From Granulicella mallensis (GTDB lineage Bacteria > Acidobacteriota > Terriglobia > Terriglobales > Acidobacteriaceae), in assembly GCF_014203225.1 (NCBI RefSeq), contig NZ_JACHIO010000009.1, forward strand, positions 1-64,000: a stretch of 64,000 nt of DNA, read 5' to 3'. Position 1 is the first letter of the stretch; each line of letters starts with the position of its first letter. The notes beneath the pieces were generated by a model, which did not search any database, was not told where the DNA came from, and worked only from the letters and a program-made list of their open reading frames with translations. Position numbers and translations under genes: made by a program. Positions 26,550 to 45,054 of the stretch are shown in pieces.

Positions 26550-26577
26550 TGAGAATTCCCTTTTGCTAACGAACAAA

Positions 26578-28737
26578 TTACTTCCAACGCAGTTCAACCA
26601 GCGTCGAGGCCGAAGGCGATAACTTCACACTGAGATCCGCATGAGCGGAATCCCGTTTTGTTCCTGAAGCGACATCGATCACAGTAACAGTCGCTGTCGC
26701 AAGCGACTTATCGATGCGGTCCAAGGGGATCGTGATGGTCTGAGCATGCTTCTCGTCGTAGTTGAAGAACGCAACGTACACACCATGAGCAGAGGCGCGA
26801 ACGAAGGCATCCGTAGCTTTGTCGCCCGTATTGCCTTCAATGGGACGAAACGTCTTCTCCTCGGCACCAACGGCTAACCACGGGCGATTGTTATAGACAG
26901 CCTGCGCCAGTTCGCGCCCCTGAGGATCATCCGCCAGACGGCTGCTATCGAGCACCATGCCGCCGCTGATGATGGCCGAAAGCAGACGGCTCTTGCCTTC
27001 GTCCACATTGCGCGCACCCTGGTCAGCCTTCTCGCCGAGAACTACGTGATCAGGATCGGTAATGTAAAGATTCTTGCTCGTCCACCAGCCATAGGTAAGC
27101 GAGTTGAGCATGTACTCCGTCGATTGATCGCCGCCGCTGATATGCCCCTTGGTGTCACAGGAGAGCCGTCGGGCGTGTCCATAGCCCGAAGGAAAGAGCG
27201 GAGCAATGGAGAGGCTAAGGAACATGTGATTCCCTGTCACATCGACGATCTGCTTCATGCCGAGGTTATAAGCCTGAATGCCTGTCTGGATCGCAGGATC
27301 GAAGTGAACACCTTCGAGCGCACCGTGAGAGAGAAAATCGATCTTGAGATATTGAAAGCCGAGCTTCTGGAACTGTTGCAGATAGTAAGCTGCCCGAGCT
27401 TTCGAACCAGGATGCGATGGGTCGATCGCCAGGCCTCCATCTACCTTCGGAAGCAAAGAGCCATCGGGCGCCTTCAACAGAATGTCGCGGTAGCGATACT
27501 TCATGTTCGTGCCTTCGACATAGGCATCGAGATCGTCAGACCAATAAGCAAACGGAGTCCAGTAGATACCCGGTTCGAAGCGAGTGCCATCCGCGCCGTG
27601 CATCGCCTTGATCGTAGCGACGGCATCCGTCAGCTGTACTGCATCAAGCTTCGACCAGAAGGCATCGAAGTTGATGTAAACCACTTTGTGATTGCCGAAC
27701 CCCAGCGGCACCAGGGTGTCACGGACAAACGCAGCGGAACCAAGGTAACGGCGATCGTCGATCTTGTCGGCATACGAGGCCCAGCTATTCCATCCCATCG
27801 GGGCGCCCTCAGCCCACTTGAGAGGAGCATGGATAGCGGCATTAGCAGCACCGTAAGCTTCCAGCCCATCGCGCCAGTCGGAGAACGATCCGATAAAGAT
27901 GCGCGGTGAAACCACATGTGTGCCATGCACGATGCCATGCGGAACAGTGTCATGTGTATCTGTCCGGACGCCAGTAGGAGACGAGATACCACCATAGATA
28001 TCGAGGTCCGTCAGTTGGCCGTCCGCGGCGTGAGCTTCAATGGCTGTCTTCCAGGTGTCATGAGTAATCGACCCGAGGATCAAGGCCTGGCGGCTCGTAT
28101 TATCGTAGAGCGCTGTCACTTCGTCGCTGGTAACCAGTTGGCTGGGCTTCAGGTCTGCGGCAGAGACGCTGTCGTAACGGAACCACATGTCGTTATCGAA
28201 GGGAACGTGCAGCACACGCAGTGACTTGCTTTCGCCGATCTGCACCGTGTCCGATCCTTTGAGCATGACGGCATCGAAATGCCGTGTGCCGACAGCCCCA
28301 TCCTTCGGATCGAGTTCTGCCTCGATAGCAATCCAGGGCTTGCCGTCGTAGATCCAGATATGCTGCAGAAGCCCCGGCTGACCGGCAGCCGTACTGCGAA
28401 TGGTGTACTCATGCCCCGCTGTAGCGCTCGCAGCATGCGGAGTCCTGTCCAACTCATGTTCCGTATAGGTGGCAGTCGAAAGCTGACGGCCATCTTCGAG
28501 ACGCGCACCGCTCGTTATGCCAAGAAGCTTGTGCCCGTCACGCCACTCGATATCCATCGTGCCCGTCTGGCGGTGATAGTGGATGGTGAGTAACTGATTT
28601 TGGAGCTTTATCTCCTGCTGAGAGATAGCAGGGTTTGCTTGTGCAGCCGCCTGCGAGGTTGTGGAGCTTACAAGTACCGTAATGGCCGTCATTCCAGCTA
28701 CAGCCAACACTCGCCGCAAACTTGCATCGCGTTTCAT
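26578..28737 (-). CDS. Secreted clan GH-D glycoside hydrolase (alpha-galactosidase-like)
   Basis: The 719-residue protein has a signal peptide and an N-terminal beta-sandwich (about 35-290). A GH27/GH36-type barrel begins at APMGWNSWASYADKIDD (about 312), with the likely nucleophile aspartate in YLKIDFLSHG. A C-terminal beta-sandwich ends it. The GH-D placement rests on MGWNSW and KIDF; the exact family and substrate are uncertain. It is first in a GH-D, GH95, SGNH gene set read from the minus strand, 365 bases downstream of receptor 1. Confidence 0.8.
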   Translation of the reverse strand: MKRDASLRRVLAVAGMTAITVLVSSTTSQAAAQANPAISQQEIKLQNQLLTIHYHRQTGTMDIEWRDGHKLLGITSGARLEDGRQLSTATYTEHELDRTPHAASATAGHEYTIRSTAAGQPGLLQHIWIYDGKPWIAIEAELDPKDGAVGTRHFDAVMLKGSDTVQIGESKSLRVLHVPFDNDMWFRYDSVSAADLKPSQLVTSDEVTALYDNTSRQALILGSITHDTWKTAIEAHAADGQLTDLDIYGGISSPTGVRTDTHDTVPHGIVHGTHVVSPRIFIGSFSDWRDGLEAYGAANAAIHAPLKWAEGAPMGWNSWASYADKIDDRRYLGSAAFVRDTLVPLGFGNHKVVYINFDAFWSKLDAVQLTDAVATIKAMHGADGTRFEPGIYWTPFAYWSDDLDAYVEGTNMKYRYRDILLKAPDGSLLPKVDGGLAIDPSHPGSKARAAYYLQQFQKLGFQYLKIDFLSHGALEGVHFDPAIQTGIQAYNLGMKQIVDVTGNHMFLSLSIAPLFPSGYGHARRLSCDTKGHISGGDQSTEYMLNSLTYGWWTSKNLYITDPDHVVLGEKADQGARNVDEGKSRLLSAIISGGMVLDSSRLADDPQGRELAQAVYNNRPWLAVGAEEKTFRPIEGNTGDKATDAFVRASAHGVYVAFFNYDEKHAQTITIPLDRIDKSLATATVTVIDVASGTKRDSAHADLSVKLSPSASTLVELRWK

Positions 28738-28801: not shown

Positions 28802-29005
28802 CCTGGAGGCAGTGCTATTACTACCGCGACCGGATGGTAGAGATGTACACCTTTTACGTTGTAACTACCAGCGTTATAGCTTCCGGGGTTGAACTTAGAG
28901 AATCATCATAAGGGACATGGCTCACGGTATGCACGCTTATGGAATAAGTCCCGGCCACTGTCGGGACACAGGGAATAGAAAGCTCAGGCAGGGCTCTGAG
29001 TGCGA

Positions 29006-29038
29006 CAACCGCACCATCATAAAACGATGGTGCGGTTG
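29006..29038 (-). terminator. Perfect 13-bp hairpin downstream of receptor 1
   Basis: CAACCGCACCATC (29006-29018) pairs with GATGGTGCGGTTG (29026-29038). No T-tract follows on either strand, so it may stabilise the mRNA end or work with the hairpin at 29055-29099. Confidence 0.5.
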
Positions 29039-29054
29039 CCCAGCTTAGTGATCT

Positions 29055-29099
29055 CCATGACTTGCTGAGGTTGCTATGACCTTCCTCGTCAAGTCATGG
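29055..29099 (-). terminator. Hairpin at the receptor 1 stop codon
   Basis: CCATGACTTG (29055-29064) pairs with CAAGTCATGG (29090-29099), directly next to the receptor stop at 29102. The loop is 25 bases with a small inner GAGG/CCTC pairing. No strong T-tract was found. Confidence 0.45.
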
Positions 29100-29101
29100 G
29101 G

Positions 29102-32100
29102 TTAGAAGACATACTTCGCAGAAAGCTGCAGGAATCGAGCATCCGGCGTGTTGGCTTGGAATGACTTAGGCCCGGTGATCTGACCACCATTCGAACTGTT
29201 GTCCGAGGTAGAGGGATTTCCAAGCGTCGGATGATTCAAGAGATTGAAAGCATCCACACGGAACGAAAGGTATTGTTTTCGGAACGTGGCAAAGTCCTTG
29301 AAAAGTGACATATTGACACCATAGTAGCCGGGGCCGTAAACGGTGTTCGATCTGCCACCGAGGAACGACAGTGCTGCCCCTTCGCTCGTGACGGGTGAGG
29401 CAATCGTGCAGGGAACGCCGTTGACCACTGTGCCTGGCGCCGTGTTGAGCGGGCAGATCAAATTACCCGGTAGCGGGTTGGCAAATGCGCAAGGGTTATA
29501 CCAATTCGCTTTGTTCCTGGTCTGGGTGGGGCAAGTGATATTCGGATTGGAACTATTCGGAGATCCGCCAGGAGCAAATGGGTCACGAATCTCTATAGCT
29601 CTTGCGCTACCACCGTTCGCGGTACTGATGTTAGAAGTGCCTACCGTAAACGGCGTACCGGTCTGAGCCGCGAAAGTGAGGCTCGAGGACCATCCCCCAA
29701 CGATCTCATCTTCCCAGCGCGATTTATTCAGGAACGCTTTGCCTCTTCCAAAGGGCAGTTGATAGTTACCGTTCAATGTAAACCGGTGACGAACGTCATA
29801 GGGCGAGTTGGCATATTCCTCGGTGTAGGGGATGAGTGCCATATTGCGATCGCCGACAGCAGATTCAAGACCACCCGCGTCGCTGTCGTCAGTCAAGCTA
29901 TGCGACAAGGTATAGGTTGCCAGGAAGCTGAGCCCATGAGACGCACGCTTTTCCAGTTTGGCCTGCATTGAGTTGTAGTTGCTGATACCGCCATAGTGAA
30001 TGGTACCTGCACCTCCGAAATCGGGAAACGGCTGATACTGTTGCGTGCTGACGCCCGAGGCAAAGAGGCCTCGTATCGTATTGGGGTCGAAATAGAGCGG
30101 AAGATGACGCGAAACATTGCCGACGTAACTCACCGTCGCAACCATATTGGTGGTGATCGACCGCTCGACCGACAGGTTGTAATTCATGGTGTAAGGCGTT
30201 TTGATGAAGGGATCGATGGCATGAAAGCCTGGGGTCGACACGAAGTTCTGCAGCCCATTACCTGTCTTGGCAACCAGTCCCGTCTCCAGGGTGACGCCTT
30301 GGGCGCTAAGGGATGGGCAGTTACCAACAGAGCAAGTAGGGGTAAAGAGATTCGCTGAATTCGACCAGGGGAAATTGGTCCCCAGGTTTGTATTTCCCTC
30401 GCTCTGCAGGCCTCCGTAGAAAATACCGAAGCCGCTGCGAACTACCGTCTTTGCCGTCGGTTGATACGCAAAGCCGATACGAGGCGCAAAGTTGAGTTCT
30501 TGTCCTTTCGCCAAACGCTCATTGTCGTTGTACTGGAGTGCGATATTATCCTGGGCTAACAAGGCCAGGAACGGTGCACCGAGATCTACACCCCGTGACC
30601 GGCTGGGAAGTTCATAAACAGCAGATCCTGTGCCGATGCCGAGGTTGGTGGCATTGATGAAGTTTGCCTGGCTTCCGCTATTTTCTTTGTAAGGCTGATA
30701 GTGGTCATACCTGAGACCAAGATTGAGGGTAAAGTTATGAGCGACCTTCCAGTCATCCTGGAAATAGGCGGAGTCATACCACTGCACATCGTTGATCGCC
30801 GGGGACGTAGAGATATCGGCAGTATTCATCTGGTCGACAAGGAAGTCAGCTGACGAAGCGCCTGTATTTCCTACTCCCACGGCTGCCGTGTAGGTACCGG
30901 TATAGAAGTATTGCCCGGTTGGAGCTGCCGCATAACGGTCGAAGACGCGTATGGACTGGAACGATACGCCAACCTTCAGAGAATGGTTGCCGATAGTTTT
31001 GTTGACGTTGTCCAGAATCTGATAGACGTTCTGGGCTTCATCCTGTGTACCTACGGAGCCCCACTGCTGGATATCTCCATAGGTTCCATTGCTGAAATAA
31101 CCCAGCGGCAGTCCACCTAGACCAGGTCCCGGAAAAGGAACATTCCCCAAGCCCAGCGATGCGGCGAGCGTGCTGCTGTTCGAGTTCGGTTGGTGGTACT
31201 GAGAGTGGATCCAGTTATAACCGAAGCGGAACTCGTTGGTGAGCGTCGGCGCAAAGGCATGGGTCTCGCTCAGGATGAAGTTCTCAGCCAGATTCGTATC
31301 GTTTTCGCCGCCGAAACCGCTACCGTCAAGGATTGGCCCGAGCGGAAGCCCGTTTGTCTTGATTTCGTGCGCATAGCTATAGCGCGCGTAGGCCTGGTCT
31401 CTCTGGCTGATGTTCCAATCGAGTCTCTGGTCCCACTGAATTGTATTGTCCGTCTGGCCCAAATTTACGTTGTAATTGTTGTAGGTCTGTCCCGTAACAC
31501 CAGCATTCGGATTGGGGTACATGTTGAGGATGTTCTGTGCAACCGAGTTGATTTGGGTAGGACAGAAAACATTGTTCAAACCATTGCAGGATAGCGTCTG
31601 CGCACCGCCGGAGTTGGGCTGGTAGAGCTGAACCGCTACGCCCTGCTTTACGAGAGCAGGATTTAGAAACTCACTGAAGTTTCCCTGACGCATCAGGGCT
31701 GTCGGCACGGTGAGAATATTCGGATTGGCGATCGAAATACGATTTGCCTCGATGTCGCCGAAGTAGAAGAAGTGGTTCTTCCAGATTGGGAGACCGAGAG
31801 TCGCTCCAAATTGGTTCTCGTGGTAAGGCGCAACGGACTGGGCATTCCAGGGCTGCGCGTCGAGACTGGTATTGCGAACATACTCCCACACATCGCCGTG
31901 AATCTGGTTCGTACCGGACTTGATGCTGGCACTCAGCACCGCACCAGCCGAGTGACCGAACTCTGCGCTGAAGTTACTCGTCTGCAGACTGAACTCAGCC
32001 AGTGCATCAGGCGGCGGTCGCACCACGTAGCTCGAGCCATTGAGGAAGTCGATCAGATTCGTGTTGTTGTCGACACCATCCAACAGAAAATCGTTCTGCT

Positions 32101-32686
32101 CGGCACTCTGGCCATTGGCCACAAAGTCGCCCGTGCCACTGCCGCGCGTGTTGCCGAAGGGAGGAGCAACGCCTGCAGTCAATTGGGCAATGTAAACCCA
32201 GTTACGGCCGTTCAACGGAGTGTTGTTAATGGTCTCTGAGCTGATGACCTGTCCAACGGCGCTGGTCTGCGTTTCGAGCAACGGAGACTCGGTCGTGACC
32301 GTCACCTGCTGCGTCACCTCACCCGGCTTCAAGGCGAGCGTAACGTTCAGGCGCTGCTGGATGTCCAGGTGCAGGTTCTCACGCACAGTGGTCTGGAAGC
32401 TTGGGGCAGTCGCTGACAGCTTGTAGTTGCCGATCTTCACAGGCGCAAACACGAAGACGCCATCGTTATTGGCCGTGCGCTCAAGAGAAAAGGCGGTATC
32501 CGTGGCGGTGAGAGTGACCTTTGCCCCCGGAATAATTGCACCCTGATCGTCTTGAACGACTCCTGTAATCGCGCCCTGATCCGTCTGAGCCCATGCCGAG
32601 GGCACGACGAACGCGAGCAGGCAAACAGCGAACAATGTGCTGTAGTAGAAGAGCTTATTGCTTCTATCAACTAAATTTCTAAACAT
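29102..32686 (-). CDS. TonB-dependent receptor with carboxypeptidase-regulatory-like domain (receptor 1)
   Basis: This 1194-residue outer-membrane protein has a signal peptide (LFAVCLLAFVVPSAWAQ). A regulatory-like beta-sandwich (about 20-110) contains GAITGVVQDDQGAIIPGAKV, followed by a plug (about 120-230, NDFLLDGVDNNTN) and a beta-barrel ending in LSAKYVF. This is the Oar-like family that acidobacteria use without SusD, probably for oligosaccharide uptake. ATG at 32686 has AAGGAAGG six bases upstream and is preferred over the frame start at 32719. Receptor 2 is a clear relative with the same order of parts. Confidence 0.9.
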   Translation of the reverse strand: MFRNLVDRSNKLFYYSTLFAVCLLAFVVPSAWAQTDQGAITGVVQDDQGAIIPGAKVTLTATDTAFSLERTANNDGVFVFAPVKIGNYKLSATAPSFQTTVRENLHLDIQQRLNVTLALKPGEVTQQVTVTTESPLLETQTSAVGQVISSETINNTPLNGRNWVYIAQLTAGVAPPFGNTRGSGTGDFVANGQSAEQNDFLLDGVDNNTNLIDFLNGSSYVVRPPPDALAEFSLQTSNFSAEFGHSAGAVLSASIKSGTNQIHGDVWEYVRNTSLDAQPWNAQSVAPYHENQFGATLGLPIWKNHFFYFGDIEANRISIANPNILTVPTALMRQGNFSEFLNPALVKQGVAVQLYQPNSGGAQTLSCNGLNNVFCPTQINSVAQNILNMYPNPNAGVTGQTYNNYNVNLGQTDNTIQWDQRLDWNISQRDQAYARYSYAHEIKTNGLPLGPILDGSGFGGENDTNLAENFILSETHAFAPTLTNEFRFGYNWIHSQYHQPNSNSSTLAASLGLGNVPFPGPGLGGLPLGYFSNGTYGDIQQWGSVGTQDEAQNVYQILDNVNKTIGNHSLKVGVSFQSIRVFDRYAAAPTGQYFYTGTYTAAVGVGNTGASSADFLVDQMNTADISTSPAINDVQWYDSAYFQDDWKVAHNFTLNLGLRYDHYQPYKENSGSQANFINATNLGIGTGSAVYELPSRSRGVDLGAPFLALLAQDNIALQYNDNERLAKGQELNFAPRIGFAYQPTAKTVVRSGFGIFYGGLQSEGNTNLGTNFPWSNSANLFTPTCSVGNCPSLSAQGVTLETGLVAKTGNGLQNFVSTPGFHAIDPFIKTPYTMNYNLSVERSITTNMVATVSYVGNVSRHLPLYFDPNTIRGLFASGVSTQQYQPFPDFGGAGTIHYGGISNYNSMQAKLEKRASHGLSFLATYTLSHSLTDDSDAGGLESAVGDRNMALIPYTEEYANSPYDVRHRFTLNGNYQLPFGRGKAFLNKSRWEDEIVGGWSSSLTFAAQTGTPFTVGTSNISTANGGSARAIEIRDPFAPGGSPNSSNPNITCPTQTRNKANWYNPCAFANPLPGNLICPLNTAPGTVVNGVPCTIASPVTSEGAALSFLGGRSNTVYGPGYYGVNMSLFKDFATFRKQYLSFRVDAFNLLNHPTLGNPSTSDNSSNGGQITGPKSFQANTPDARFLQLSAKYVF

Positions 32687-32783
32687 ATTAGGCCTTCCTT
32701 TTGATTCAACACCCCGCAATGGGGATCTTCGCTACCGTTCCGATGCGATGTGCATTTCCGCTTTGATCATTCCCTTGCCACGA

Positions 32784-32797
32784 TGTATACGTATACA
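32784..32797. promoter_or_regulatory. LacI-type operator, site O1a
   Basis: TGTATACGTATACA is a perfect 14-base palindrome, and one more pair (A/T) extends it on each side. It lies 98 bases before the receptor 1 start, and its centre is 22 bases (two helical turns) from site O1b. The same palindrome recurs at 32806, 36907 and, with one mismatch, 43894. Confidence 0.85.
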
Positions 32798-32805
32798 TGA
32801 AATCC

Positions 32806-32819
32806 TGTATACGTATACA
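32806..32819. promoter_or_regulatory. LacI-type operator, site O1b
   Basis: This is a second perfect TGTATACGTATACA. Relative to the predicted receptor 1 start of transcription (about 32827 on the minus strand) it covers roughly +8 to +21. A bound repressor there would block initiation or early elongation. Confidence 0.85.
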
Positions 32820-32833
32820 TGTGCCGCTCAAAA

Positions 32834-32863
32834 CCTATAGTGGAACGAATAGAGCGTTGTCAA
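32834..32863 (-). promoter_or_regulatory. Predicted sigma-70 promoter of receptor 1
   Basis: On the minus strand TTGACA (32858-32863) is followed by an 18-base spacer and TATAGG (32834-32839). The receptor 2 promoter has the same -35, the same spacer length and a near-identical -10. GATAATCGTT at 32882-32891, just upstream, matches in reverse a sequence found before the ROK kinase gene. Confidence 0.7.
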
Positions 32864-32910
32864 CTTATTTTTTACAGATGCGATAATCGTTTCACGGGCG
32901 GCATTTTTAC

Positions 32911-33159
32911 ATGAAGAAGCTCGCAACTGCACTTGGGCTCAAGTTCATATTTCAGCCAGCAATTCAGTCCAGCAAGCAGCAGGCACAGCCTTGTCTTTTT
33001 TGCGATCTTTCACACCGACATGCCAGCCCGCACCTTCCCACCGCAGTCACGACAATTGCCTTCGTCACCGCCAGGGGTCGAGCGCTTGAGATTGCCGAAC
33101 TCGTTTCAGTAGGCACCAATCAAATGCCCAGCAAACAGAACGCGCAGCATGTCCCTTGA
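32911..33159 (+). pseudogene. Decayed fragment of an SSS symporter gene
   Basis: The stretch around 33020-33115 is clearly related to the start of the intact symporter at 37091. HLPTAVTTIAFV and RALEIAELVS correspond to TLPTAVTAIAFV and GALEIVGIVS. A one-base deletion near 33036 shifts the upstream part out of frame, and nothing of the symporter remains after about 33120. An 82-codon open frame spans it, but I see no reason to think it is a functional gene. Its position relative to receptor 1 repeats that of the intact symporter relative to receptor 2. Confidence 0.75.
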
Positions 33160-33190
33160 CGTTGAAGCGTCGGGGAACATGCTGCGCGTT
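33139..33190 (-). terminator. Long hairpin downstream of receptor 2
   Basis: AACGCGCAGCATGT (33139-33152) pairs perfectly with ACATGCTGCGCGTT (33177-33190), with an inner GACG/CGTC pairing in the loop. It lies about 50 bases after the receptor 2 stop. On the minus strand it is followed by a modest T-rich run (CTGTTTGCTG). Confidence 0.6.
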
Positions 33191-33238
33191 GTCAGCAATA
33201 GAGGCCATCAGGATTCAACAGCCTTAGAGCTGATGAAT

Positions 33239-36200
33239 CTAGAAGTAGAAATTTCCCGAGAGTTGTACCGTTCTGCCGCCAAAGTTGAGACCAGTAATTT
33301 GGCCAAAGGTGCTGCTGCCCGGATAATTATTGGGCTCCCCATAGCCCGGAACGTTGAATACGTTGAAGATATCTCCGCGGATCTTGAAGCCCATCCCACG
33401 ATAAAGATTGAATGCCTTGAACAGGGAGAGGTCGGTTTTGTTGAAGCCCGGGCTATAAACCAGCGTTCGTCCTGCCGGCCCATAAGCCGCTTTTCCGCCA
33501 TTGTTCGAGACACTTACCTGCCCGGCTGATACAGGCTGGCCTGGATCGATTGCGACAGGAGGATTGATAAAGGCGCAAGGATTAAACCAGCTCTGCAATG
33601 TTTTTGTCTTCGTTGCGCAGGGCAGCCCAAACCCAAGCACCGGATCAGAAACACCACCGGGCTTGAAGGGATCAGCGATCCTGACGGCGTTTGCTCGCCC
33701 TACCCCGCCTGTTGAGTTGTTGCTGGACTGAATGCTGAGTGGGTTACCAGATTGAACGGAGAATGCGATGTTTGCAGACCATCCGCCGACAAGCGTGTTG
33801 GCAATCCCTTTATGATTCATCCACTGCTTACCGGCGCCAAACGGGAGTTCATACCCGCCTGTCAGGGTAGCCCGATGGCGTACATCCTGATAAGAACTGC
33901 CATAATCGTAGCTAAGTCCAAGCTGGCGCGCATTGCGATAATCAATGCCATTGGAGGCATCGCTCAGCGGCTGGCGAGAATCATCGAGGGAATGAGAGAG
34001 CGTATACGATGCGGCAAACTGGAGCCCCTTCGAGAATCTACGCTCCAGCTTTGTCTGCAGCGAGTTATAGTTCGCATCAGAACCATAGACGATATAACTT
34101 CCATAGTTGAGATCAGGGTAAGGACGGGCTGCCTGCGAATTATCCCCTGGTCCGACTGGCAGCGGCTGATTATTGGGGTCGACCGGTGTCTGCAGATGAT
34201 GCGTTGTCGAACCGACATAACCAACGGTAGCCGTCAGATTAGAACTGAAGGAACGTTGTACGGTTAGATTGTATTGCTGAGAATAAGGTGTCTTTACATC
34301 GTCTGAGCCGTTCAGGTTCGGCGAGGCCGCATCCTGAATGATGCCGGTAGCCAGAACCTTGGACCATCCCGTTTCAAGCGTCTGACCGTTTGTAGGGCAG
34401 TTTCCATAAACGCAGCCCGCGCTATTGAAGTTGCTATTGAACGCAAACGGCGGGTTGACACCAAGATTTAGAGAATAACCGATGCCCTCGAGAGCCCCAT
34501 AGAAGATGCCGTACGCTCCACGAACGACAGTCTTGTCGTTGATGGAATATGCAAATCCAATGCGAGGAGCAAAGTTTTTGTAGTCGGGTTTGACCAGATA
34601 ATGGTTGTCCGTGTACTGCACAACGACGCCATCCTTAGCAAAATTTGCCAACAGGTTGGGCGGCAGCGGATTACTGCGGGTGCTGGTTGGCAGCAAATAG
34701 ACGCCACCGGTGATATTTTCTGCGGGGTTGTAGTTCAGCACAGGAACGTTCGGACGGAAATTACCCATCTGATCGTTCCGCTCTCGCGCCGGCGTCGTGT
34801 ATTCGTAGCGCAGTCCGGCATTGATGGTGAGTTGCGAGGTGGCCTTCCAATCGTCCTGGAAGTAGCCTGCACGCACCCAATAGATATTGTTGGTCGTGGT
34901 GATGTTTGAAAGAGCTGAACTGCTCATCTCGTTCAGCAGCATGTCCGCTGCGCCGTAGCCGGTTGTTCCCTGGTTATTGGGGTCCTGGGTGAACTTTCCA
35001 CTAAAGCTTATTTGGCCAATGCCATTGTTCGGCTGAAGAGTGGCGACGCGGAGACTTTGGATGTTTACACCAAAGTGCAGCGAATGATTGCCAACGATGC
35101 GAGTGACGTTGTCGTTGATCTGCCAAACGTTCTGGTGCTCATTGGAAGGCTCATACCCGGAGGCTCCAAAATTGCTGATGCCATTGTTATTGTTCACATT
35201 GAAGGCAGGTATACCGCCGAGATTAGGTCCTGAAAGCAGTCCGCCAAGCCCAAAGGATTCCGCAAGCCCTGTCTGGTTGTAACCAGCCTGGTAAAAGGCC
35301 GAGTGATTCCAGTTGTAGCCATACCGCAGCTCATTGATAAACTTCTCGCTAAACTCATGGGTTTCGCTGAAAGCGAAGCTGCGGCTTTGGTTGATGACGG
35401 TCGAACCGCCAAAACCGGCCCCATCCAAAACACCAAAGGGCGAAGGCGAGAATTTAGGCTGATTCTCAAAGCTGTATCGAGCGAATGCCTGGTCGTGGCT
35501 GGAGATATTCCAGTCTGTTCTTACATCGAACTGGTTGGTATTGATCGCCTGGTGCCCATTGAAGATGTAATTGTTATACGTTTGCCCCTGAATGCCAAAG
35601 TTCGGTTCAGGAAAGGCTGCAAGCAGTTTTTGGGCAACGGCATCGACTTGTGACGGGCAGATAACATTGACCTGCCCATTGCACGAAAGATAGTTGGTGG
35701 TCCCATTCGTTCCTGGCGCCGGGCCGCCCGCGTTATACAACTGCCGATTGTTATGATTTGTGAGCGAGGCCTGCAGTAGCTCGCTAAAGTTTCCCTGACG
35801 CATCAGGTCGGTAGGCACGGTGTATTGGCCAGAGGAGCTCGTGGTGATTTCGCGCAGGCCCTGATAATCACCGAAGAAGAAGAGCTTGTTCTTCCAGATG
35901 GGCCCGCCGAACGTAGCTCCAAACTGGTTATAGCGCAACTCCGGAGAGACACGGCTGAAGTAGTTATTTCCGGTAATGGTGTTTAGCGCATCGTTCTGGA
36001 AATACTCCCATGCACTGCCATGAAACGAGTTTGTTCCTGATTTGATGCTGGCATTGATCACGGCTCCAGCGGAGTGCCCTAATTCAGCGCTATAGTCGCT
36101 CGTCTGGATCTTGAACTCCTGAAGAGCATCGGGAGGAGGGTTAACGATAAAGCTTGCTCCATTGAGGAAGTCCGTCAGATTCGAGTTGTTGTCCACACCG

Positions 36201-36811
36201 TCAAGAATGAAGTTGTTCTGTTCGGTTCGTTGACCATTGGCCGAGAAATCTCCACTTGCCGCATTTCGCGAACCCTGTTGCCCTTGATTGACGCCGGCGG
36301 TTAATTGCGCCAGGAAAACATAGTTGCGGCTGGCCAGAGGGGTATTGTTGATCGTTTGCGAGTCAAACACGTGCCCGGAAGACCCATCTTCCGTCTGCAT
36401 CAAGGGGATGCTTGAACCCGAAACATCTACAGTCTGTGTCGCAGCTCCAACTCGCAGGGTCACGTTCATACCGAGGCGCTGGCTTACCTGCAGTTCAAAA
36501 TCAGTAATGGATGTTGTTTGAAATCCGGATGCGGCGGCGGTGATCGTATAGTGACCGATCTTCAACGGCGAAAAGACGTACACTCCTCGCTGATCGGTTG
36601 TCGTCTTCAACTCAAGTGCCGTACCAAGATCTTTGATCGTCATACTGGCATTTGGAATTGCCGCTCCCTGTTGATCCGTAACGGTGCCAGTAACCGATCC
36701 CTGGTCGACCTGGGCCCATGCCGAAGGCATGGTGAACGAGAGCAGACAAATAGCTGAAAGTGCGCTGTAAAGGAGGAGCTTCTTGCTTCTATCCAGGAAA
36801 TCTTTAAACAT
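33239..36811 (-). CDS. TonB-dependent receptor with carboxypeptidase-regulatory-like domain (receptor 2)
   Basis: The 1190-residue outer-membrane receptor shares its order of parts and many segments with receptor 1: signal peptide ending PSAWAQ, GSVTGTVTDQQGAAIPNASM, plug with NNFILDGVDNNSNLTDFLNG, and a barrel ending in LSGNFYF. The start at 36811 has AAGGAAGG upstream, as in receptor 1. It is divergent from the SSS symporter, with a LacI-type operator in between. Likely role: uptake of an oligosaccharide released by the nearby hydrolases. The ligand cannot be read from sequence. Confidence 0.9.
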   Translation of the reverse strand: MFKDFLDRSKKLLLYSALSAICLLSFTMPSAWAQVDQGSVTGTVTDQQGAAIPNASMTIKDLGTALELKTTTDQRGVYVFSPLKIGHYTITAAASGFQTTSITDFELQVSQRLGMNVTLRVGAATQTVDVSGSSIPLMQTEDGSSGHVFDSQTINNTPLASRNYVFLAQLTAGVNQGQQGSRNAASGDFSANGQRTEQNNFILDGVDNNSNLTDFLNGASFIVNPPPDALQEFKIQTSDYSAELGHSAGAVINASIKSGTNSFHGSAWEYFQNDALNTITGNNYFSRVSPELRYNQFGATFGGPIWKNKLFFFGDYQGLREITTSSSGQYTVPTDLMRQGNFSELLQASLTNHNNRQLYNAGGPAPGTNGTTNYLSCNGQVNVICPSQVDAVAQKLLAAFPEPNFGIQGQTYNNYIFNGHQAINTNQFDVRTDWNISSHDQAFARYSFENQPKFSPSPFGVLDGAGFGGSTVINQSRSFAFSETHEFSEKFINELRYGYNWNHSAFYQAGYNQTGLAESFGLGGLLSGPNLGGIPAFNVNNNNGISNFGASGYEPSNEHQNVWQINDNVTRIVGNHSLHFGVNIQSLRVATLQPNNGIGQISFSGKFTQDPNNQGTTGYGAADMLLNEMSSSALSNITTTNNIYWVRAGYFQDDWKATSQLTINAGLRYEYTTPARERNDQMGNFRPNVPVLNYNPAENITGGVYLLPTSTRSNPLPPNLLANFAKDGVVVQYTDNHYLVKPDYKNFAPRIGFAYSINDKTVVRGAYGIFYGALEGIGYSLNLGVNPPFAFNSNFNSAGCVYGNCPTNGQTLETGWSKVLATGIIQDAASPNLNGSDDVKTPYSQQYNLTVQRSFSSNLTATVGYVGSTTHHLQTPVDPNNQPLPVGPGDNSQAARPYPDLNYGSYIVYGSDANYNSLQTKLERRFSKGLQFAASYTLSHSLDDSRQPLSDASNGIDYRNARQLGLSYDYGSSYQDVRHRATLTGGYELPFGAGKQWMNHKGIANTLVGGWSANIAFSVQSGNPLSIQSSNNSTGGVGRANAVRIADPFKPGGVSDPVLGFGLPCATKTKTLQSWFNPCAFINPPVAIDPGQPVSAGQVSVSNNGGKAAYGPAGRTLVYSPGFNKTDLSLFKAFNLYRGMGFKIRGDIFNVFNVPGYGEPNNYPGSSTFGQITGLNFGGRTVQLSGNFYF

Positions 36812-36906
36812 ATGTTTAGCCTTCCTTTTGATTCGATCTGCAATCGCAACCTGCTCTGCTGCTCATAAGCAACGTACTTTGCGTAGAGGCCTTACCTGCT
36901 GATTGA

Positions 36907-36920
36907 TGTATACGTATACA
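36907..36920. promoter_or_regulatory. LacI-type operator, site O2
   Basis: This is a perfect TGTATACGTATACA in the gap between receptor 2 and the symporter. It is 96 bases before the receptor 2 start, almost the same distance as O1a from receptor 1. It covers about +9 to +22 of the predicted receptor 2 transcript and could also affect the divergent symporter. Confidence 0.85.
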
Positions 36921-36935
36921 CGGAGAGTGTCAGAA

Positions 36936-36965
36936 TCTATATTGGAATGCATAAGGAATTGTCAA
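36936..36965 (-). promoter_or_regulatory. Predicted sigma-70 promoter of receptor 2
   Basis: On the minus strand TTGACA (36960-36965), an 18-base spacer and TATAGA (36936-36941) form a near-consensus promoter. Flanking bases align with the receptor 1 promoter, consistent with a shared origin. Confidence 0.75.
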
Positions 36966-37090
36966 CTGAATTTTTCAGAGGGGTGACAATTGCTGCACTG
37001 CAGCCTCGCTCTCTGCCGATACCTATGATTGCGCACATACTTAGAGGCACGCCTTAACCATCTCTTCAGCACCAGGTAAGACTTAGACAC

Positions 37091-38689
37091 TTGCAAGCTT
37101 TCCCTCCCAATCCGCTCGACCTCACCGTCATCGGGGTCTACTTCGCCGCGACCATCCTGGTCGGGTGGCTCTTTCGCCGTAAGGCTCATTCCTCTTCCGA
37201 CTTCTTTCATGCGGCCCGCACCTTGCCCACCGCCGTCACGGCGATCGCCTTCGTTGCAGCCAATTGTGGAGCGCTTGAGATTGTCGGGATTGTCTCCGCC
37301 AGTGCAAAATATGGCGCAAAGACGCTTCATTTCTACTGGATCGGCGCCATTCCGGCGATGCTCTTTCTCTCCCTCTGCATGTTGCCCATTTATATGCGGA
37401 GCCGCGCGCTCACCGTACCCGAGTTCCTGAAGCTGCGTTTCAACGGGTCGACACGCACGCTGAATATCGTGTGCTGCGGCGTCATGATGATCCTTGTCTC
37501 CGGCATCAGCCTGTATGCCTTGGCGCAGGTCCTACGCACCTTTCTTGGATGGAGTTTTACAGAGACCACATTATCCGCCGCAGCCATCGTCTTCCTGTAT
37601 GTGTCCCTCGGTGGCCTGACGGCAACGATGTACAACGAGGTCATCCAGTTCGTCCTGATCGTCCTCGGGCTTCTGCCGCTCGTGTTCTTCATCCTGCATG
37701 ATTTCCACGGCATGGCTGGTCTCACAGCGCAACTGGAGCCTGCCATGCGCCATACATGGGTCGGACTACCCGTGGCGAATCCTCACGCCATCCCGATGGA
37801 TGTCATCGGCGTCTCCATGGGACTGGGGTTTGTTCTCAGCTTCGGATACTGGTGCACAGACTTCGTGTTGATCCAACGTGCCCTGGCCGCACGCACTACG
37901 GCCGGAGTACTCAACACTCCCCTCGTGGCGGCCTTCGTAAAGCTCCTGTTCCCTGTCCTGGTCGTCCTTCCCGGCCTGGCGGCGGCGGTTCTCTTCCGCT
38001 CCGTCCCCGGATTCCACTACGACCAGGCGCTGCCGGCTTTGATGATGCGTTACTACCGTCACGGCCTGCTCGGGTTCGGAATTACCGCCATCCTCGCAAG
38101 CCTGATGTCGGGACTGGCAGGAAACATCAACGCCCTGACCACCATCTGGACGCACGATATCTATAGGGCCTCCCTGTCGCCGAATAAAAGTGACAGCCAT
38201 TACGTCCGAGTAGGAAGAATCTCCACTCTGGTTGCGATTCTGCTCAGCATCGCGACGGCCTATCTAGCCTTGTCCTTCAACAACATCATGGACTACCTGC
38301 AGTTGCTCTTTTCCCTGTTCAATGCCCCGTTGCTGGCGACGTTTCTGCTGGGCATGTTCACGATGTGGGCTACCCCCAAGGCTGGCTTCTGGGGGCTCTT
38401 GATTGGGACACTCTCGTCGGTCGTGCACAATTTCGCCTACCGACTGCACTGGATCACGTATGGAAGCGATATGAGCGCCAACTTCTACGGAGCCATTCTT
38501 GCCTTCTCCAGTTGTCTTGTCGTCACTGCCTTGCTGAGTGCGTTTACTCCGGCAAAATCACGCAAGCAACTCGCCGACCTTACCTGCTGGACAGGCACGC
38601 ATCATGGCATTCAAATCCCCAGAACGGCCGTAGTGCTTGCCGGTGTTGCACTCGTCATCTGCATCTTTTTGAGCATTCTTTTTCGATAG
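37091..38689 (+). CDS. Sodium:solute symporter, SSS family
   Basis: The 532-residue inner-membrane protein has about 13-14 helices and belongs to the SLC5-like family. FFHAARTLPTAVTAIAFVAANCGALEIVG near the N-terminus and the LTVPEFLKLRF segment after the third helix are typical. The first possible start is TTG at 37091, because an in-frame stop lies upstream at 37055 and no ATG fits. It is followed after about 70 bases by the GH36 gene on the same strand, so it probably imports a sugar or oligosaccharide product. Confidence 0.9.
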   Translation: MQAFPPNPLDLTVIGVYFAATILVGWLFRRKAHSSSDFFHAARTLPTAVTAIAFVAANCGALEIVGIVSASAKYGAKTLHFYWIGAIPAMLFLSLCMLPIYMRSRALTVPEFLKLRFNGSTRTLNIVCCGVMMILVSGISLYALAQVLRTFLGWSFTETTLSAAAIVFLYVSLGGLTATMYNEVIQFVLIVLGLLPLVFFILHDFHGMAGLTAQLEPAMRHTWVGLPVANPHAIPMDVIGVSMGLGFVLSFGYWCTDFVLIQRALAARTTAGVLNTPLVAAFVKLLFPVLVVLPGLAAAVLFRSVPGFHYDQALPALMMRYYRHGLLGFGITAILASLMSGLAGNINALTTIWTHDIYRASLSPNKSDSHYVRVGRISTLVAILLSIATAYLALSFNNIMDYLQLLFSLFNAPLLATFLLGMFTMWATPKAGFWGLLIGTLSSVVHNFAYRLHWITYGSDMSANFYGAILAFSSCLVVTALLSAFTPAKSRKQLADLTCWTGTHHGIQIPRTAVVLAGVALVICIFLSILFR

Positions 38690-38761
38690 GGTGAAGCCGC
38701 AATGCGGTGCTTGAGTTTGCGGCAGCAAGAGAAATAACCAATTTGTAAGCGGAGCAAAGTG

Positions 38762-41059
38762 ATGCCTGGAGCAGGAAGAACTAGGAAAAATGATTTGAAT
38801 ACCCTTTTGTCCTCCGATAAAAGCAGCGCCAGCGGATTTCATCTTGTGTACAGGATGTTGCTGGCGACGGCGATCTTCATCGCTCCCCTTTGTCTCCGGG
38901 CTCAGGCACAGACATCGTCTATCCACTTCGATAAGCAGACGAAGGTCTTCCGCATCGATGCTGCCGACGTGTCTTATATCTTCGGCGTCAATGAGAACAA
39001 GCAGGTTCAAACGCTGTACTGGGGCAAGCGCCTCAGCGCTGCAGACACCTTTGCTGCCGCCAAGTCCGCCCCAGGGGCTTCGTCCTCCGATCCATCCATA
39101 GACACAACCCGGCAAGAGTTTGTCGCATGGGGTGGAGGACTGTACGTCGAGCCGGATTTGAAGGTCACCTTCCCCGATGGGAACCGCGATCTAGTTCTGC
39201 AATACGTCTCGCATACCATCACCGGCAACCATTTGACGCTGCAGCTCAAGGACATATCGCGCGAGGTTTACGTCGAACTACAGTATGAGATCGACCCGGA
39301 GACCGGTATTCTACGGCGCTCGGCAGAGGTGCAGAATAAGACCTCCCTGCCGTTGACGATCGAGCAGATAGCCTCCGGCACCTGGACACTGCCTCGCGCT
39401 CAGGATTATCGACTGCGCTACCTTACAGGGCGTTGGGCCGGAGAGTGGAACCTTCGTGAGCAGGCAATCCAACCGGGCAAAATCACGTTGGAGAGCCGGC
39501 GCGGATCAACCGGGGCTCAGAATAATCCCTGGTTCGCAATCGACCGCAACAGCTCGAACGATCAGGATCAGGGCGATGTCTGGTTCGGGGCTCTCGGTTG
39601 GAGCGGATCCTGGCAGATCAACATCGAGCAGGATCAGATTCAGCAGGTACGCGTAACCGGCGGCCCTAACAGCTTTGACTTCGGCTATCGCCTGGCCGCG
39701 GGCGAAAGCCTGCAATCGCCGTACTTCTATGCAGGCTACTCACATGACGGCATTGGCGGAGCTTCACGTCTGCTGCACCGGTTTGAACTCGCCAGCATCC
39801 TGCCAGGCGCATCTCACCCCAAGCTGAGACCTGTGCTTTATAACTCCTGGGAAGCTACCGGCTTCCATGTCGATGAAGCAGGCCAGGAAGCCCTTGCAGA
39901 GAAGGCCGCCAGCATCGGGGTGGAACGCTTCGTAGTAGACGATGGCTGGTTTGGGCAGCGAGCCGGCGATCACGCAGGACTGGGCGACTGGTATGTGAAT
40001 CCCGTGAAGTTTCCGCATGGCCTGAAGCCTCTGATCGACAAAGTGCATTCGCTGGGGATGGACTTCGGCCTATGGATTGAGCCGGAGATGGTAAATCCCG
40101 ATTCAGACCTTTACCGCAAGCATCCCGATTGGATACTGAATTTCACTGGTAGACCACGCAGCCAGGGACGGCACCAGTTCGTACTGAATCTAGCCAGACC
40201 CGATGTGCGCGAGTATGTCTTCAACTTCATCGACAAGTTGCTCGAGGAGAATGACATTGCCTTCCTCAAGTGGGATTACAACCGCAACTGGTCTGAGCCA
40301 GGCTGGCCTGCGGTCTCACCCGACGAGCAAAAGAAGGTGTACGTCACCTACACGCAGAACCTCTATTCCATCCTGGGGGAACTGCGCAGGAAACATCCGA
40401 AGGTAGAGATTGAAAGCTGCTCCGGTGGAGGCAGCCGTGTCGATCTCGGCATCATGCGCTACACCGATGAGGTATGGCCCTCCGATAATACGGATGCCTT
40501 CGACCGCCTGAAGATCCAGGACGGCTTCACCTATGCCTACACGCCCGGCGTGATGATGTCCTGGGTAACCGATACGCCGACTCAGATCAATCATCGGATG
40601 CTTTCGCTGGACTACCGCTTTCTTTCTTCGATGCAGGGATCGCTGGGCATTGGAGCGAACCTCAATGACTGGAAGCCGGAAGACTTTGCCACGGCAAAGA
40701 AGATGGTGTCGCGGTACAAACAGATTCGTGAAGTCGTGCAGCGCGGCTCTCTGTATCGCCTGATTTCGCCAGGAGATGGCAGCGAACAGTCGGTCACAGA
40801 AACAGTCTCACAGGACCAGACACAGGCTGTAGCCTTCGCCTTCCTGCATTCGAGCGAAATGCTCTACCCGTTTCCGCGAATCTATCTTCGTGGCCTAAAG
40901 CCCGATGCCCTCTACCGAATTGAAACGCTGGACGGGAAGCTGGCTGGCGATTCACCGGCGGTTGCCAGTGGAGCTTTCTGGATGCAGCAGGGAGTGGATG
41001 TAGACCTGAAGGGTGACTTTCAGGCCGCTGCATTCACCCTGAAGATCGTCTCCCAATAA
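38762..41059 (+). CDS. GH36 alpha-galactosidase
   Basis: The enzyme has an N-terminal signal region (MLLATAIFIAPLCLRAQAQ), although a charged stretch of about 30 residues precedes it. The GH36 core shows LGDWYVNPVKFPHGL, GLWIEPEMVNPDSDLY, nucleophile aspartate in FLKWDYNRNW, ESCSGGGSRVDLGIM and acid/base aspartate in PSDNTDAFDR. It releases alpha-galactose from galactosides or galactomannan-type chains. ATG at 38762 has GGAG seven bases upstream and is preferred to the GTG at 38759. It is probably co-transcribed with the symporter. Confidence 0.95.
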   Translation: MPGAGRTRKNDLNTLLSSDKSSASGFHLVYRMLLATAIFIAPLCLRAQAQTSSIHFDKQTKVFRIDAADVSYIFGVNENKQVQTLYWGKRLSAADTFAAAKSAPGASSSDPSIDTTRQEFVAWGGGLYVEPDLKVTFPDGNRDLVLQYVSHTITGNHLTLQLKDISREVYVELQYEIDPETGILRRSAEVQNKTSLPLTIEQIASGTWTLPRAQDYRLRYLTGRWAGEWNLREQAIQPGKITLESRRGSTGAQNNPWFAIDRNSSNDQDQGDVWFGALGWSGSWQINIEQDQIQQVRVTGGPNSFDFGYRLAAGESLQSPYFYAGYSHDGIGGASRLLHRFELASILPGASHPKLRPVLYNSWEATGFHVDEAGQEALAEKAASIGVERFVVDDGWFGQRAGDHAGLGDWYVNPVKFPHGLKPLIDKVHSLGMDFGLWIEPEMVNPDSDLYRKHPDWILNFTGRPRSQGRHQFVLNLARPDVREYVFNFIDKLLEENDIAFLKWDYNRNWSEPGWPAVSPDEQKKVYVTYTQNLYSILGELRRKHPKVEIESCSGGGSRVDLGIMRYTDEVWPSDNTDAFDRLKIQDGFTYAYTPGVMMSWVTDTPTQINHRMLSLDYRFLSSMQGSLGIGANLNDWKPEDFATAKKMVSRYKQIREVVQRGSLYRLISPGDGSEQSVTETVSQDQTQAVAFAFLHSSEMLYPFPRIYLRGLKPDALYRIETLDGKLAGDSPAVASGAFWMQQGVDVDLKGDFQAAAFTLKIVSQ

Positions 41060-43654: not shown

Positions 43655-44043
43655 TGTATTTCCTCTCTTGCTATTCGAACCAGCTAGCAAGTAGCCGATT
43701 GAATTTCACTGGCTTACTCAGTGCGGGGCAGACCGAAGAAAGTCACACGAGTTACCGCTCGCAGCTGCGCACCCTGCTGCAGGACATCCATAAAGGCACA
43801 CCTCACCTGAAACGCGGTCACGGTTCATCCGAGCCTCGCGCATTCCCACGCCCGTTTGAATCCATCTCTTCAGGTCAAGAACTAGCGGTACTATGTATAC
43901 GTGTACATAAGGAAATTTGGCAAGTCTGGAACAAATTTATTAACCGGACGTCTATTGAATGGATGCCCACATTTTTATTCCCTTGCTTGTTCTTCCTCTA
44001 ACCCCACACACTGCTTATCACGACGAAGGAGTTGAACCGCACG
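43655..44043. promoter_or_regulatory. Divergent promoter region, GH27 and LacI regulator 1
   Basis: This is a 389-base gap with no believable gene. It holds the O3 operator and AAGGAG (44026-44031), the ribosome binding site of the regulator. For the minus strand, TTGCCA (43918-43923) and TATACA (43894-43899) with an 18-base spacer form a plausible promoter whose -10 lies inside the operator. Confidence 0.6.
43894..43907. promoter_or_regulatory. LacI-type operator, site O3
   Basis: TGTATACGTGTACA differs from the perfect palindrome at one base. It overlaps the predicted -10 element of the GH27 promoter and lies 137 bases before the regulator gene, so it could serve both repression of GH27 and autoregulation. 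Confidence 0.8.
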
Positions 44044-45054
44044 ATGGACATGCGCGAGATTGCCAAATTGGCCGGAGTATCGAGTGCCACCGTATCGCGT
44101 GTCATTAACGGGTCGAGCCTTGTGCGGCCCGAGACCGTCGAGCGCGTTCGCAAGGTCATCGACGAGGTAAAGTTCTTTCCCAACAACAGCGCTACAACGC
44201 TGAAGTACGGCAGAAGCGGCACGTATGGCTTGATCATCCCGGACATCACCAATCCGTTCTTTCCGGAGTTCATCAAGAGCTTCGAAGGAATCGTCGTTGA
44301 AAACGATCAGGAGATGCTGATGGCAACCACCGACTTTCACTCCGGCCGCATGCAGCAATCGATTCGACGCATGCTAATCCGCAAGGTGGATGGTGTGGCC
44401 CTGCTGGCCTCGGAGATAGAAACCGAACCCTTTGAAGACCTCATCCAGAATCGCGTCCCCTTAGTCACCATGGACCGAGGACATATCGGCAATGGGCTAA
44501 GCGATGTCGCCATCAACAACAAAAGCGGTATGGATCAGGCCTTGCGCCACCTGAAAGATCTTCGCCATAAAAAGATCGGTTACATCGGCGGGTTTGCCGG
44601 TCTCACCATCTCGGATCATCGCGTCGAGGCCTTCATGCGCGCGCTGAAGCGGGTCGATATCGTGCCACGGCCGGAGTTCATCAAGGTCGGCAACTACCGC
44701 ATCACCGGCGGCATGACGGCCATGACCGAGTTACTGTCACTCAAAGATCGACCGACCGCAGTGTTGGCTGCGAATGACCTGACGGCCATCGGTGGTATGC
44801 GCGCGGCGATGAAGATGGGATTCTCTATCCCGGGTGACCTGTCGATCATTGGATTCGACGATATCGACATGAGTGATATCGTGCATCCACCGCTCACGAC
44901 GCTTCGGCTCTCGAGACACGAGCTGGCAAAGGTCTTCTTTGACGCCCTCGAACACCTCAAGTCCAATCCCCACGCCCAGGGAGAGCAGCTCAGCGTGAAG
45001 ACAAGCCTGGTAGTACGTGAGTCCACAGGGCCTGCGCCGAAACGTTCGGTGTAA
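44044..45054 (+). CDS. LacI family transcriptional regulator 1
   Basis: The 336-residue protein has an N-terminal helix-turn-helix and hinge (MREIAKLAGVSSATVSRVIN, then VRPETVERVRKVI). A periplasmic-binding-like effector domain follows, with GLIIPDITNPFFPEF and IIGFDDIDMSDIVHPPLTT. ATG at 44044 is preferred to the TTG at 44032, which overlaps the AAGGAG sequence. It sits next to operator O3 and is the best candidate to bind TGTATACGTATACA sites in front of both receptors and GH27. The inducer is probably a galactose- or fucose-type sugar; this is inference. Confidence 0.92.
   Translation: MDMREIAKLAGVSSATVSRVINGSSLVRPETVERVRKVIDEVKFFPNNSATTLKYGRSGTYGLIIPDITNPFFPEFIKSFEGIVVENDQEMLMATTDFHSGRMQQSIRRMLIRKVDGVALLASEIETEPFEDLIQNRVPLVTMDRGHIGNGLSDVAINNKSGMDQALRHLKDLRHKKIGYIGGFAGLTISDHRVEAFMRALKRVDIVPRPEFIKVGNYRITGGMTAMTELLSLKDRPTAVLAANDLTAIGGMRAAMKMGFSIPGDLSIIGFDDIDMSDIVHPPLTTLRLSRHELAKVFFDALEHLKSNPHAQGEQLSVKTSLVVRESTGPAPKRSV

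What the first reader, a model, noticed from the sequence alone, without database searches (positions are those of the whole stretch)
29102..38689. Tandem duplication of a receptor/symporter module, with one symporter copy decayed
Receptor 1 and receptor 2 are relatives with the same strand and matching promoters. A fragment with LPTAV and ALEI segments of the symporter sits upstream of receptor 1, in the same divergent orientation as the intact symporter has to receptor 2. A one-base deletion and the loss of everything after the first 60 or so codons mark it as a remnant. This explains the layout in one event.
Basis: partly seen in the sequence, partly recalled or inferred. Interest (0 to 1): 0.75.

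Follow-up and report, generated by a model that had tools for sequence, protein, structure and literature searches.

The report
Second receptor inserted, leaving symporter scar
In a soil bacterium's sugar-uptake gene cluster, a second and only distantly related outer-membrane receptor gene sits between the original receptor and its sugar transporter, and a decaying scrap of transporter gene marks the join; it shows how such clusters can gain receptors, and is not a plain tandem duplication.

Summary
In detail: a decayed 5' piece of the symporter gene (core 33026-33097) lies upstream of receptor 1, continuing a duplicated promoter/operator/leader segment. The interpretation does not hold as written. 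The receptors are 44-47% identical, while receptor 1 is 71-75% identical to receptors of nine other genomes; a tree test rejects rec1+rec2 as one clade (p 8e-72). Two of those nine, Granulicella sp. dw_53 and unnamed G371, have receptor 1 directly beside an intact symporter and no receptor 2. Receptor 2 was found only in the window genome, G003 and Granulicella sp. S156, between receptor 1 and the symporter. Leader and signal peptide of rec1 and rec2 fall together, apart from dw_53 (100/100), while the bodies do not: the genes are mosaics. Edaphobacter RYN_7 carries a third receptor type behind a dw_53-like signal peptide. Best explanation: a second receptor was added by recombination anchored in the constant 5'/symporter region, and the remnant is its scar. 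Tandem duplication followed by replacement of one receptor body is the main rival. S156 lacks the scar and receptor 1's promoter. The exact operator TGTATACGTATACA occurs three times in the 6.5 Mb genome, all here. Readable evolution of a known kind of locus.

The parts
29102..32686 (-). receptor 1 (rec1), TonB-dependent receptor; most likely the original receptor of this locus
   Evidence: PF25183 E 3.6e-219, PF13620; orthologue at the same place in dw_53 (72.5%) and G371 (71%)
32561..32686 (-). signal-peptide part of rec1 (first about 42 codons), rec2-like; the mosaic changes over here
   Evidence: informative sites 12:5 for rec2 here, 53:382 in the rest, Fisher 1.1e-7; DNA tree of leader + signal peptide
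32784..32819 (.). two copies of the operator TGTATACGTATACA (32784-32797, 32806-32819) before rec1
   Evidence: two exact copies before one receptor only in the window genome and G003 among the 19 sources scanned
32834..32863 (-). rec1 promoter-like site, TTGACA-18-TATAGG
   Evidence: same arrangement before 9 of 10 receptor genes examined, missing at S156 rec1; the consensus scan, which demands T at the last place of the second hexamer, does not list it
33026..33129 (+). symporter remnant: core 33026-33097 (codons 42-66), weaker homology to about 33129 (codon about 75)
   Evidence: 60/73 identical, E 1e-15; G003 holds a longer version with other indels
33139..33190 (-). strong hairpin (17-pair stem) behind rec2, possible terminator but with a weak T run
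   Evidence: stretch 33110-33238 folds at z -7.2, 0 of 200 shuffles as stable; same in G003, absent in S156; arm sequence not found elsewhere in the genome at 0 or 1 mismatch; not listed as a terminator by the scan
33239..36811 (-). receptor 2 (rec2), the added receptor
   Evidence: orthologues found only in G003 (98%) and S156 (94%); best other listed match 51% in the 398-genome search
36936..36965 (-). rec2 promoter-like site, TTGACA-18-TATAGA
   Evidence: not listed by the scan
36907..36920 (.). operator TGTATACGTATACA of rec2/symporter
37091..38689 (+). intact sodium:solute symporter; best match among solved structures 2xq2, listed as sodium/glucose cotransporter (the Vibrio galactose transporter, recalled)
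   Evidence: PF00474 E 3.1e-46; TIGR00813 above its cut-off; 2xq2 E 1.9e-42
38759..41059 (+). GH36-type glycosidase
   Evidence: PF02065, PF16875, PF16874
41114..43690 (-). GH27-type glycosidase with CBM35
   Evidence: PF16499, PF17801, PF16990
43894..43907 (.). operator with one mismatch (TGTATACGTGTACA) between the GH27 and LacI genes
   Evidence: the same variant before lacI in S156, dw_53 and RYN_7
44032..45054 (+). LacI-family regulator, likely owner of the operators
   Evidence: PF00356 + PF13377; found beside a symporter relative in the fetched stretches of S156, dw_53, RYN_7, G371, G284, G079, G061 and G333, not in those of G114 and G162
24153..28737 (-). GH95 gene (24153-26597) and unclassified glycosidase-like gene (26578-28737) downstream of rec1
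   Evidence: syntenic in dw_53 and G371

Best explanation
This is a carbohydrate-uptake locus, probably under a LacI-type repressor, in which a second receptor has been added. Shown: two relatives have the order GH95 - glycosidase-like gene - receptor 1 - shared promoter/operator - intact symporter - GH36, with no receptor 2. In the window genome, G003 and Granulicella sp. S156 receptor 2, with a distantly related body, lies between receptor 1 and the symporter. In the window genome and G003 it is flanked by two copies of the segment [signal peptide - leader - operator/promoter - 5' end of the symporter gene]; the left copy keeps rec1's promoter and operators but ends in a symporter stub that is drifting. 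S156 has no stub, no rec1 operator and no rec1 promoter. Inferred: the one-receptor order is ancestral, and receptor 2 entered in the common ancestor of the three genomes as part of an allele [receptor 2 - promoter - symporter] from a relative with another receptor body. Recombination was anchored by homology in the promoter/symporter part and joined without homology at about symporter codon 75, so the stub was probably never a complete second gene; S156 most simply lost it later. Inferred function: both receptors serve one inner-membrane symporter and are switched together by the LacI repressor, which widens or tunes the range of galactoside-, arabinoside- or fucoside-bearing sugars taken up; in S156 the two receptors would be read as one transcript.
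For: Remnant and duplicated promoter. One-receptor state with an intact symporter in dw_53 and G371. Two-receptor state in G003 and S156. The receptors are not sisters. Mosaic: in a DNA tree of 8 rows, leader + signal peptide of the three rec1 and three rec2 genes fall on one side of a 100/100 branch, dw_53's rec1 and RYN_7's unrelated receptor on the other, while the bodies put rec1 with dw_53. Receptor bodies at this slot are exchangeable: RYN_7's body is 50% identical to G284's and 26-29% to rec1/rec2, yet its signal peptide matches dw_53's rec1 best (score 49; window rec2 29; best of the rest 25, among 96 long ORFs of the fetched loci plus six named rows). rec2 is about as old as its neighbours in the window-S156 pair (dS 1.01 against 1.01-1.29 for six other genes, near saturation). 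No genome among 398 shows two close symporter copies (11 of 398 with a match at E 1e-150, one each). Exact operator 3 times in the genome, all here.
Against: No genome with a receptor-2-only allele, the presumed donor, was found among 398 family genomes (only the best two candidates per genome were scored). The left junction cannot be read: the DNA between the stub and rec2's stop was seen only in the window genome and G003. The same layout follows from a tandem duplication of the module plus later replacement of one receptor body. Whether the duplication came before or after the S156 split is unresolved; if after, S156's arrangement needs another account. In the RYN_7 comparison window rec1, both S156 receptors and G371 rec1 do not stand out (not in the 14 best, lowest score shown 23). 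The mosaic test is weaker for S156 (11:8 against 68:344, p 9e-5; 8:7 against 86:351, p 0.005). The tree of the promoter + symporter-start segment leaves the three genomes unresolved against dw_53 + RYN_7 and G371 + G284. That the LacI protein binds these operators, and what the substrate is, are inferences.
Confidence: 0.6

Rival explanations
1. Tandem duplication of the whole module (receptor 1 - promoter - symporter), then replacement of one receptor body by a distant receptor through recombination in the signal-peptide region, and decay of one symporter copy.
For: Duplicated promoter and symporter 5' end; body exchange behind a kept signal peptide is what RYN_7 shows; leader and signal peptide of rec1 and rec2 fall together.
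Against: Needs at least two events plus loss of most of a 1.6 kb gene; no genome with two close symporters among 398; nothing recognisable of the symporter beyond about codon 75 is left in the window genome or G003.
Confidence: 0.3
2. Plain tandem duplication of a receptor/symporter module, with the two receptors diverging in place.
For: Same strand, matching promoters, symporter remnant.
Against: rec1+rec2 rejected as a clade (delta lnL 206.8, p 8e-72); rec1 71-75% identical to receptors in nine other genomes, two of them with one receptor at this place; rec2 evolves slowly (dN 0.031 between the window genome and S156), so fast divergence in place is not indicated.
Confidence: 0.03
3. The symporter fragment is a kept functional element (small protein, small RNA or promoter part) and not debris.
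For: An 82-codon frame spans it in the window; the neighbouring promoter and operators are well conserved in G003.
Against: Frames and indels differ in G003; the symporter part is 112/130 identical between the window genome and G003, the flanking intergenic part 291/312; no Rfam match at the gathering threshold in 28600-44100; S156 lacks it.
Confidence: 0.05

Closest known systems
CUT loci (carbohydrate utilization loci with a TonB-dependent receptor), e.g. sux of Xanthomonas campestris (PMC1790865, passages read)
   Same: TonB-dependent receptor, inner-membrane sugar transporter, degrading enzyme and a LacI/GalR-type regulator in one locus
   Different: Here the transporter is a sodium symporter and not a major-facilitator protein, there are two receptors, and substrate and regulation are untested
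Module displacement in Vibrio cholerae type VI effector-immunity arrays, proposed there to be akin to homology-facilitated illegitimate recombination (PMC5361080, passages read)
   Same: Incoming module anchored on a conserved upstream part, old genes left behind, serial exchange at one slot
   Different: Here an outer-membrane receptor is added and the old receptor stays intact; what is left behind is the 5' stub of the divergent symporter
Paralogue-rich Acidobacteria genomes, e.g. Candidatus Solibacter usitatus (PMC3174227, passages read)
   Same: Many divergent paralogues, attributed there to ancient horizontal transfer and duplication
   Different: Here one gain can be bracketed by before and after states, and a scar is readable

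Membership tests
Tandem duplication of a receptor/symporter module | the two receptors are each other's closest relatives | tested here: not met
   AU test p 8e-72; 46% against 71-75% to receptors of nine other genomes
Tandem duplication of a receptor/symporter module | direct repeat of promoter and symporter sequence | tested here: met
   only the 5' end of the symporter is repeated
CUT locus | TonB-dependent receptor with inner-membrane transporter, glycosidases and regulator in one locus | tested here: met
   Pfam hits and conserved synteny
CUT locus | receptor transports the carbohydrate and is induced by it | not testable with these tools
   needs growth and uptake assays
Oar-like TonB-dependent receptors (name recalled) | CarboxypepD_reg domain plus outer-membrane barrel PF25183 | tested here: met
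   both receptors above the cut-offs for PF13620 and PF25183; the Plug domain PF07715 stays below its cut-off in both
Sodium:solute symporter (SSS/SLC5) | PF00474 / TIGR00813 over the whole core | tested here: met
   best solved match 2xq2
Homology-facilitated illegitimate recombination | one end joined by homology, other end by a junction without long homology | tested here: inconclusive
   constant segment on the right and abrupt stub end at about codon 75; donor not found

The most novel reading that the evidence does not exclude
The stretch promoter - operator - leader - signal peptide, together with the divergent symporter gene, works as a fixed docking sequence through which bacteria of this family exchange or stack outer-membrane receptor bodies of different classes. 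At least three classes (rec1, rec2, RYN_7/G284 type) have occupied the slot, with breakpoints inside the signal peptide, so that every new receptor comes at once under the same LacI repressor and feeds the same symporter.
Probability: 0.35. Interest if true: 0.6.

Novelty: new variant of a known kind. Interest (0 to 1): 0.42.

Why it matters
Genomes of this family can carry very many TonB-dependent receptors (over 200 matched stretches in this one), and how their numbers and specificities change is hard to read from old, saturated paralogues. Here a gain can be bracketed, its scar is readable, before and after states exist in named and unnamed relatives, and the mosaic changes over in the signal peptide. 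This gives a concrete, testable route by which a nutrient locus gains a new outer-membrane specificity while keeping its regulation and inner-membrane transporter.

Tried and rejected
Plain tandem duplication: rejected by tree and synteny. Late transfer of rec2 into one species only: not supported, because its dS between the window genome and S156 (1.01) lies with its neighbours (1.01-1.29). Fast divergence of rec2 in place: not indicated, dN 0.031. Odd base composition of rec2 as a sign of foreign origin: GC3 0.589 against 0.60-0.72 for seven other genes of the locus and 0.60-0.69 for four paralogues; weak, not used. Shared leader as a property of all receptors of the family: not supported, since the upstream stretches of the four nearest paralogues do not show it on inspection (their start codons were guessed). 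Hairpin behind rec2 as a repeated element: its arm is found elsewhere only with 2 mismatches, two places, fewer than the control pattern. RNA families at the gathering threshold over 28600-44100: none. Consensus promoter and terminator scan: 9 promoter-like sites against 7.3 in shuffles and 13 terminator-like against 10.1; it lists neither the two receptor promoters nor the rec2 hairpin, so these rest on conservation and folding. Operator beyond the close relatives: no site with up to 2 mismatches in the stretches of G079, G114, G333 and G162. Whether the duplication precedes the S156 split: unresolved (AU p 0.27 and 0.13; open forks).

Papers: searches (3 papers; 30 papers; 0; 1; 7); passages of three papers read, the rest seen as listings only. 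I make no claim that receptor-body exchange is unpublished.

Limits: the family searches examined 398 genomes and scored only the best two or three candidates per genome; one search examined 150. The receptor tree used 55 rows, and its tool warned that rec2's long branch meets far paralogues; the AU test used 20 of the 55 rows, chosen by hand without those, and was run after the first tree had been seen. The leader/signal-peptide tree used 8 of the 10 receptors with known starts here (G371 and G284 left out) and is rooted by assumption. The cut at 34 or 42 residues was set after seeing the alignment. The 96 ORFs are those in the loci fetched by then and include some genes more than once.
Full report
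What is there. The window lies in a 6.47 Mb genome of 52 contigs. The locus holds, left to right: a GDSL esterase-like gene, a GH95 gene, an unclassified glycosidase-like gene, receptor 1, receptor 2 (all on the - strand), a sodium:solute symporter (+), a GH36 gene (+), a GH27 gene with CBM35 (-) and a LacI-type regulator (+).

The observation. Between receptor 1 and receptor 2 lies a piece of DNA that matches the start of the intact symporter gene, in the same divergent orientation: 60 of 73 positions, E 1e-15, codons 42-66. Promoter, operator and leader of the two receptors also match. In G003 the remnant is longer, about codons 34-74 by blastn, and its indels differ from those of the window; the frames do not agree. 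It is decaying DNA.

The receptors. Receptor 1 and receptor 2 share 44-47% of residues. Receptor 1 has closer paralogues elsewhere in the genome (67% and 65%) and, beyond G003 (99%) and S156 (78%), nine genomes with a 71-75% relative (100 of 398 genomes have some match at E 1e-290). Receptor 2 has orthologues only in G003 (98%) and S156 (94%); the best other listed match in 398 genomes is 51%. In a 55-row tree receptor 1 sits in a 12-row clade with dw_53 and G371 (support 99), far from receptor 2; the tool warned there that rec2's long branch meets far paralogues. In a 20-row set without those, forcing the six rec1/rec2 rows together costs 206.8 log-likelihood units, p 8e-72. So the receptors are not a local duplicate pair.

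The before and after states. The window genome and G003 have rec1 - remnant - rec2 - symporter. S156 has rec1 - rec2 - symporter with 119 bases between rec1's start and rec2's stop, no remnant and no rec1 promoter or operator. Edaphobacter RYN_7 (metagenome-assembled) and G284 have a third kind of receptor beside the symporter (26-29% to rec1 and rec2; 50% to each other).

The mosaic. In the first 42 residues window receptor 1 shares with receptor 2, against dw_53, 12 informative sites to 5; in the rest it is 53 to 382 (Fisher 1.1e-7; with G371 as reference 9:4 against 69:363, p 4.1e-5). For S156 the same test is weaker (11:8 against 68:344, p 9e-5, and 8:7 against 86:351, p 0.005). A DNA tree of leader plus signal peptide with 8 rows puts the six rec1/rec2 rows on one side of a 100/100 branch and dw_53's rec1 with RYN_7's unrelated receptor on the other (rooted by assumption, G371 and G284 not in it). 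RYN_7's signal peptide scores 49 against dw_53's, 29 against window rec2, and at most 25 against the others among 96 long ORFs and six named rows; window rec1, both S156 receptors and G371's are not among the 14 best. G284's signal peptide does not show this likeness on inspection. So the 5' end follows the locus and the body does not.

The regulation. The exact sequence TGTATACGTATACA occurs three times in the whole genome: twice before rec1 (22 bases apart, about two helical turns) and once before rec2; a one-mismatch copy precedes lacI. A TTGACA-18-TATA promoter-like site lies just upstream of the operator at 9 of 10 receptor genes examined in seven genomes; the exception is S156 rec1. Its last two bases vary (GA, GG, TG, AT), and the consensus scan, which asks for a closer match, lists neither window site. 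That the LacI protein binds the operator is inferred from position and conservation; more distant symporter loci (G079, G114, G333, G162) show no such site with up to 2 mismatches. G002, which has no receptor in this slot and carries a symporter gene reduced to residues 1-69 joined to 252-287, still keeps the exact operator between the glycosidase-like gene and the symporter piece.

Timing. rec2's dS between the window genome and S156 (1.01) lies with that of its neighbours (1.01-1.29 in six genes, close to saturation), so rec2 was most likely present in their common ancestor. The duplicated segment seems younger than the split from dw_53: the remnant and its intergenic part are closer to the rec2/symporter segments of the three genomes (66-72% and 59-66%) than to dw_53's (60-64% and 52%), and the leader/signal-peptide tree splits 100/100. 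The tree of the longer segment itself leaves this unresolved: only the two species pairs (100/100) and dw_53 + RYN_7 (97/96) are firm. Whether the duplication is older than the S156 split is also unresolved (AU p 0.27 and 0.13).

Mechanism. The simplest account is the addition of a receptor-2 allele by recombination anchored in the constant promoter/symporter part with a non-homologous join near symporter codon 75, as has been proposed for effector module displacement in Vibrio cholerae (PMC5361080, passages read). The rival is duplication of the module first and replacement of one receptor body later; body replacement behind a kept signal peptide is what RYN_7 shows. I put these at 0.6 and 0.3. 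In gene content the locus is like a CUT locus (PMC1790865, passages read): two receptors feeding one sugar symporter of the vSGLT kind, with glycosidases of families GH36, GH27 and GH95, which points to galactosides, perhaps arabinopyranosides (NCBIfam beta-L-arabinopyranosidase below its cut-off) and fucosides. Substrate and the roles of the two receptors are unknown and need experiments.

Verdict. Observation confirmed; interpretation only partly right. It is a clear and readable case of receptor gain in a known kind of locus.

Noticed in passing
26578-28737: Glycosidase-like protein without any Pfam or NCBIfam match, only weak likeness to GH36/GH27 structures (best E 5.5e-5), but present at 63-98% identity in 8 of 18 relatives' or paralogue stretches examined: possibly an unclassified clan D family.
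   Followed up: partly
L097:10237-11166 (G002): Symporter gene reduced by an internal deletion (residues 1-69 joined to 252-287), beside lacI, with no receptor in the slot and the glycosidase-like gene facing the operator.
   Followed up: partly
L097:16690-16703 (G002): Exact operator TGTATACGTATACA before a different receptor gene next to the GDSL gene, without the usual leader on inspection: a receptor perhaps recruited to the same regulon at another place.
   Followed up: partly
32784-32819: rec1 has two operators 22 bases apart in the window genome and G003, while the other receptor promoters examined have one exact or near-exact copy.
   Followed up: partly
28769-28803: Terminator-like hairpin with T run (- strand) between rec1 and the glycosidase-like gene; the gap is 365 bases here, about 720 in S156, about 80 in dw_53.
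   Followed up: no
L105 (G000:C9:237301-238988): Receptor gene of the same subfamily in separate pieces, one with an internal TAG.
   Followed up: no
G000 whole genome: Over 200 matched stretches to receptor 2 or 1 at E 0.001 in one genome (222 and 233; 150 of 169 and 150 of 189 candidates scored).
   Followed up: no
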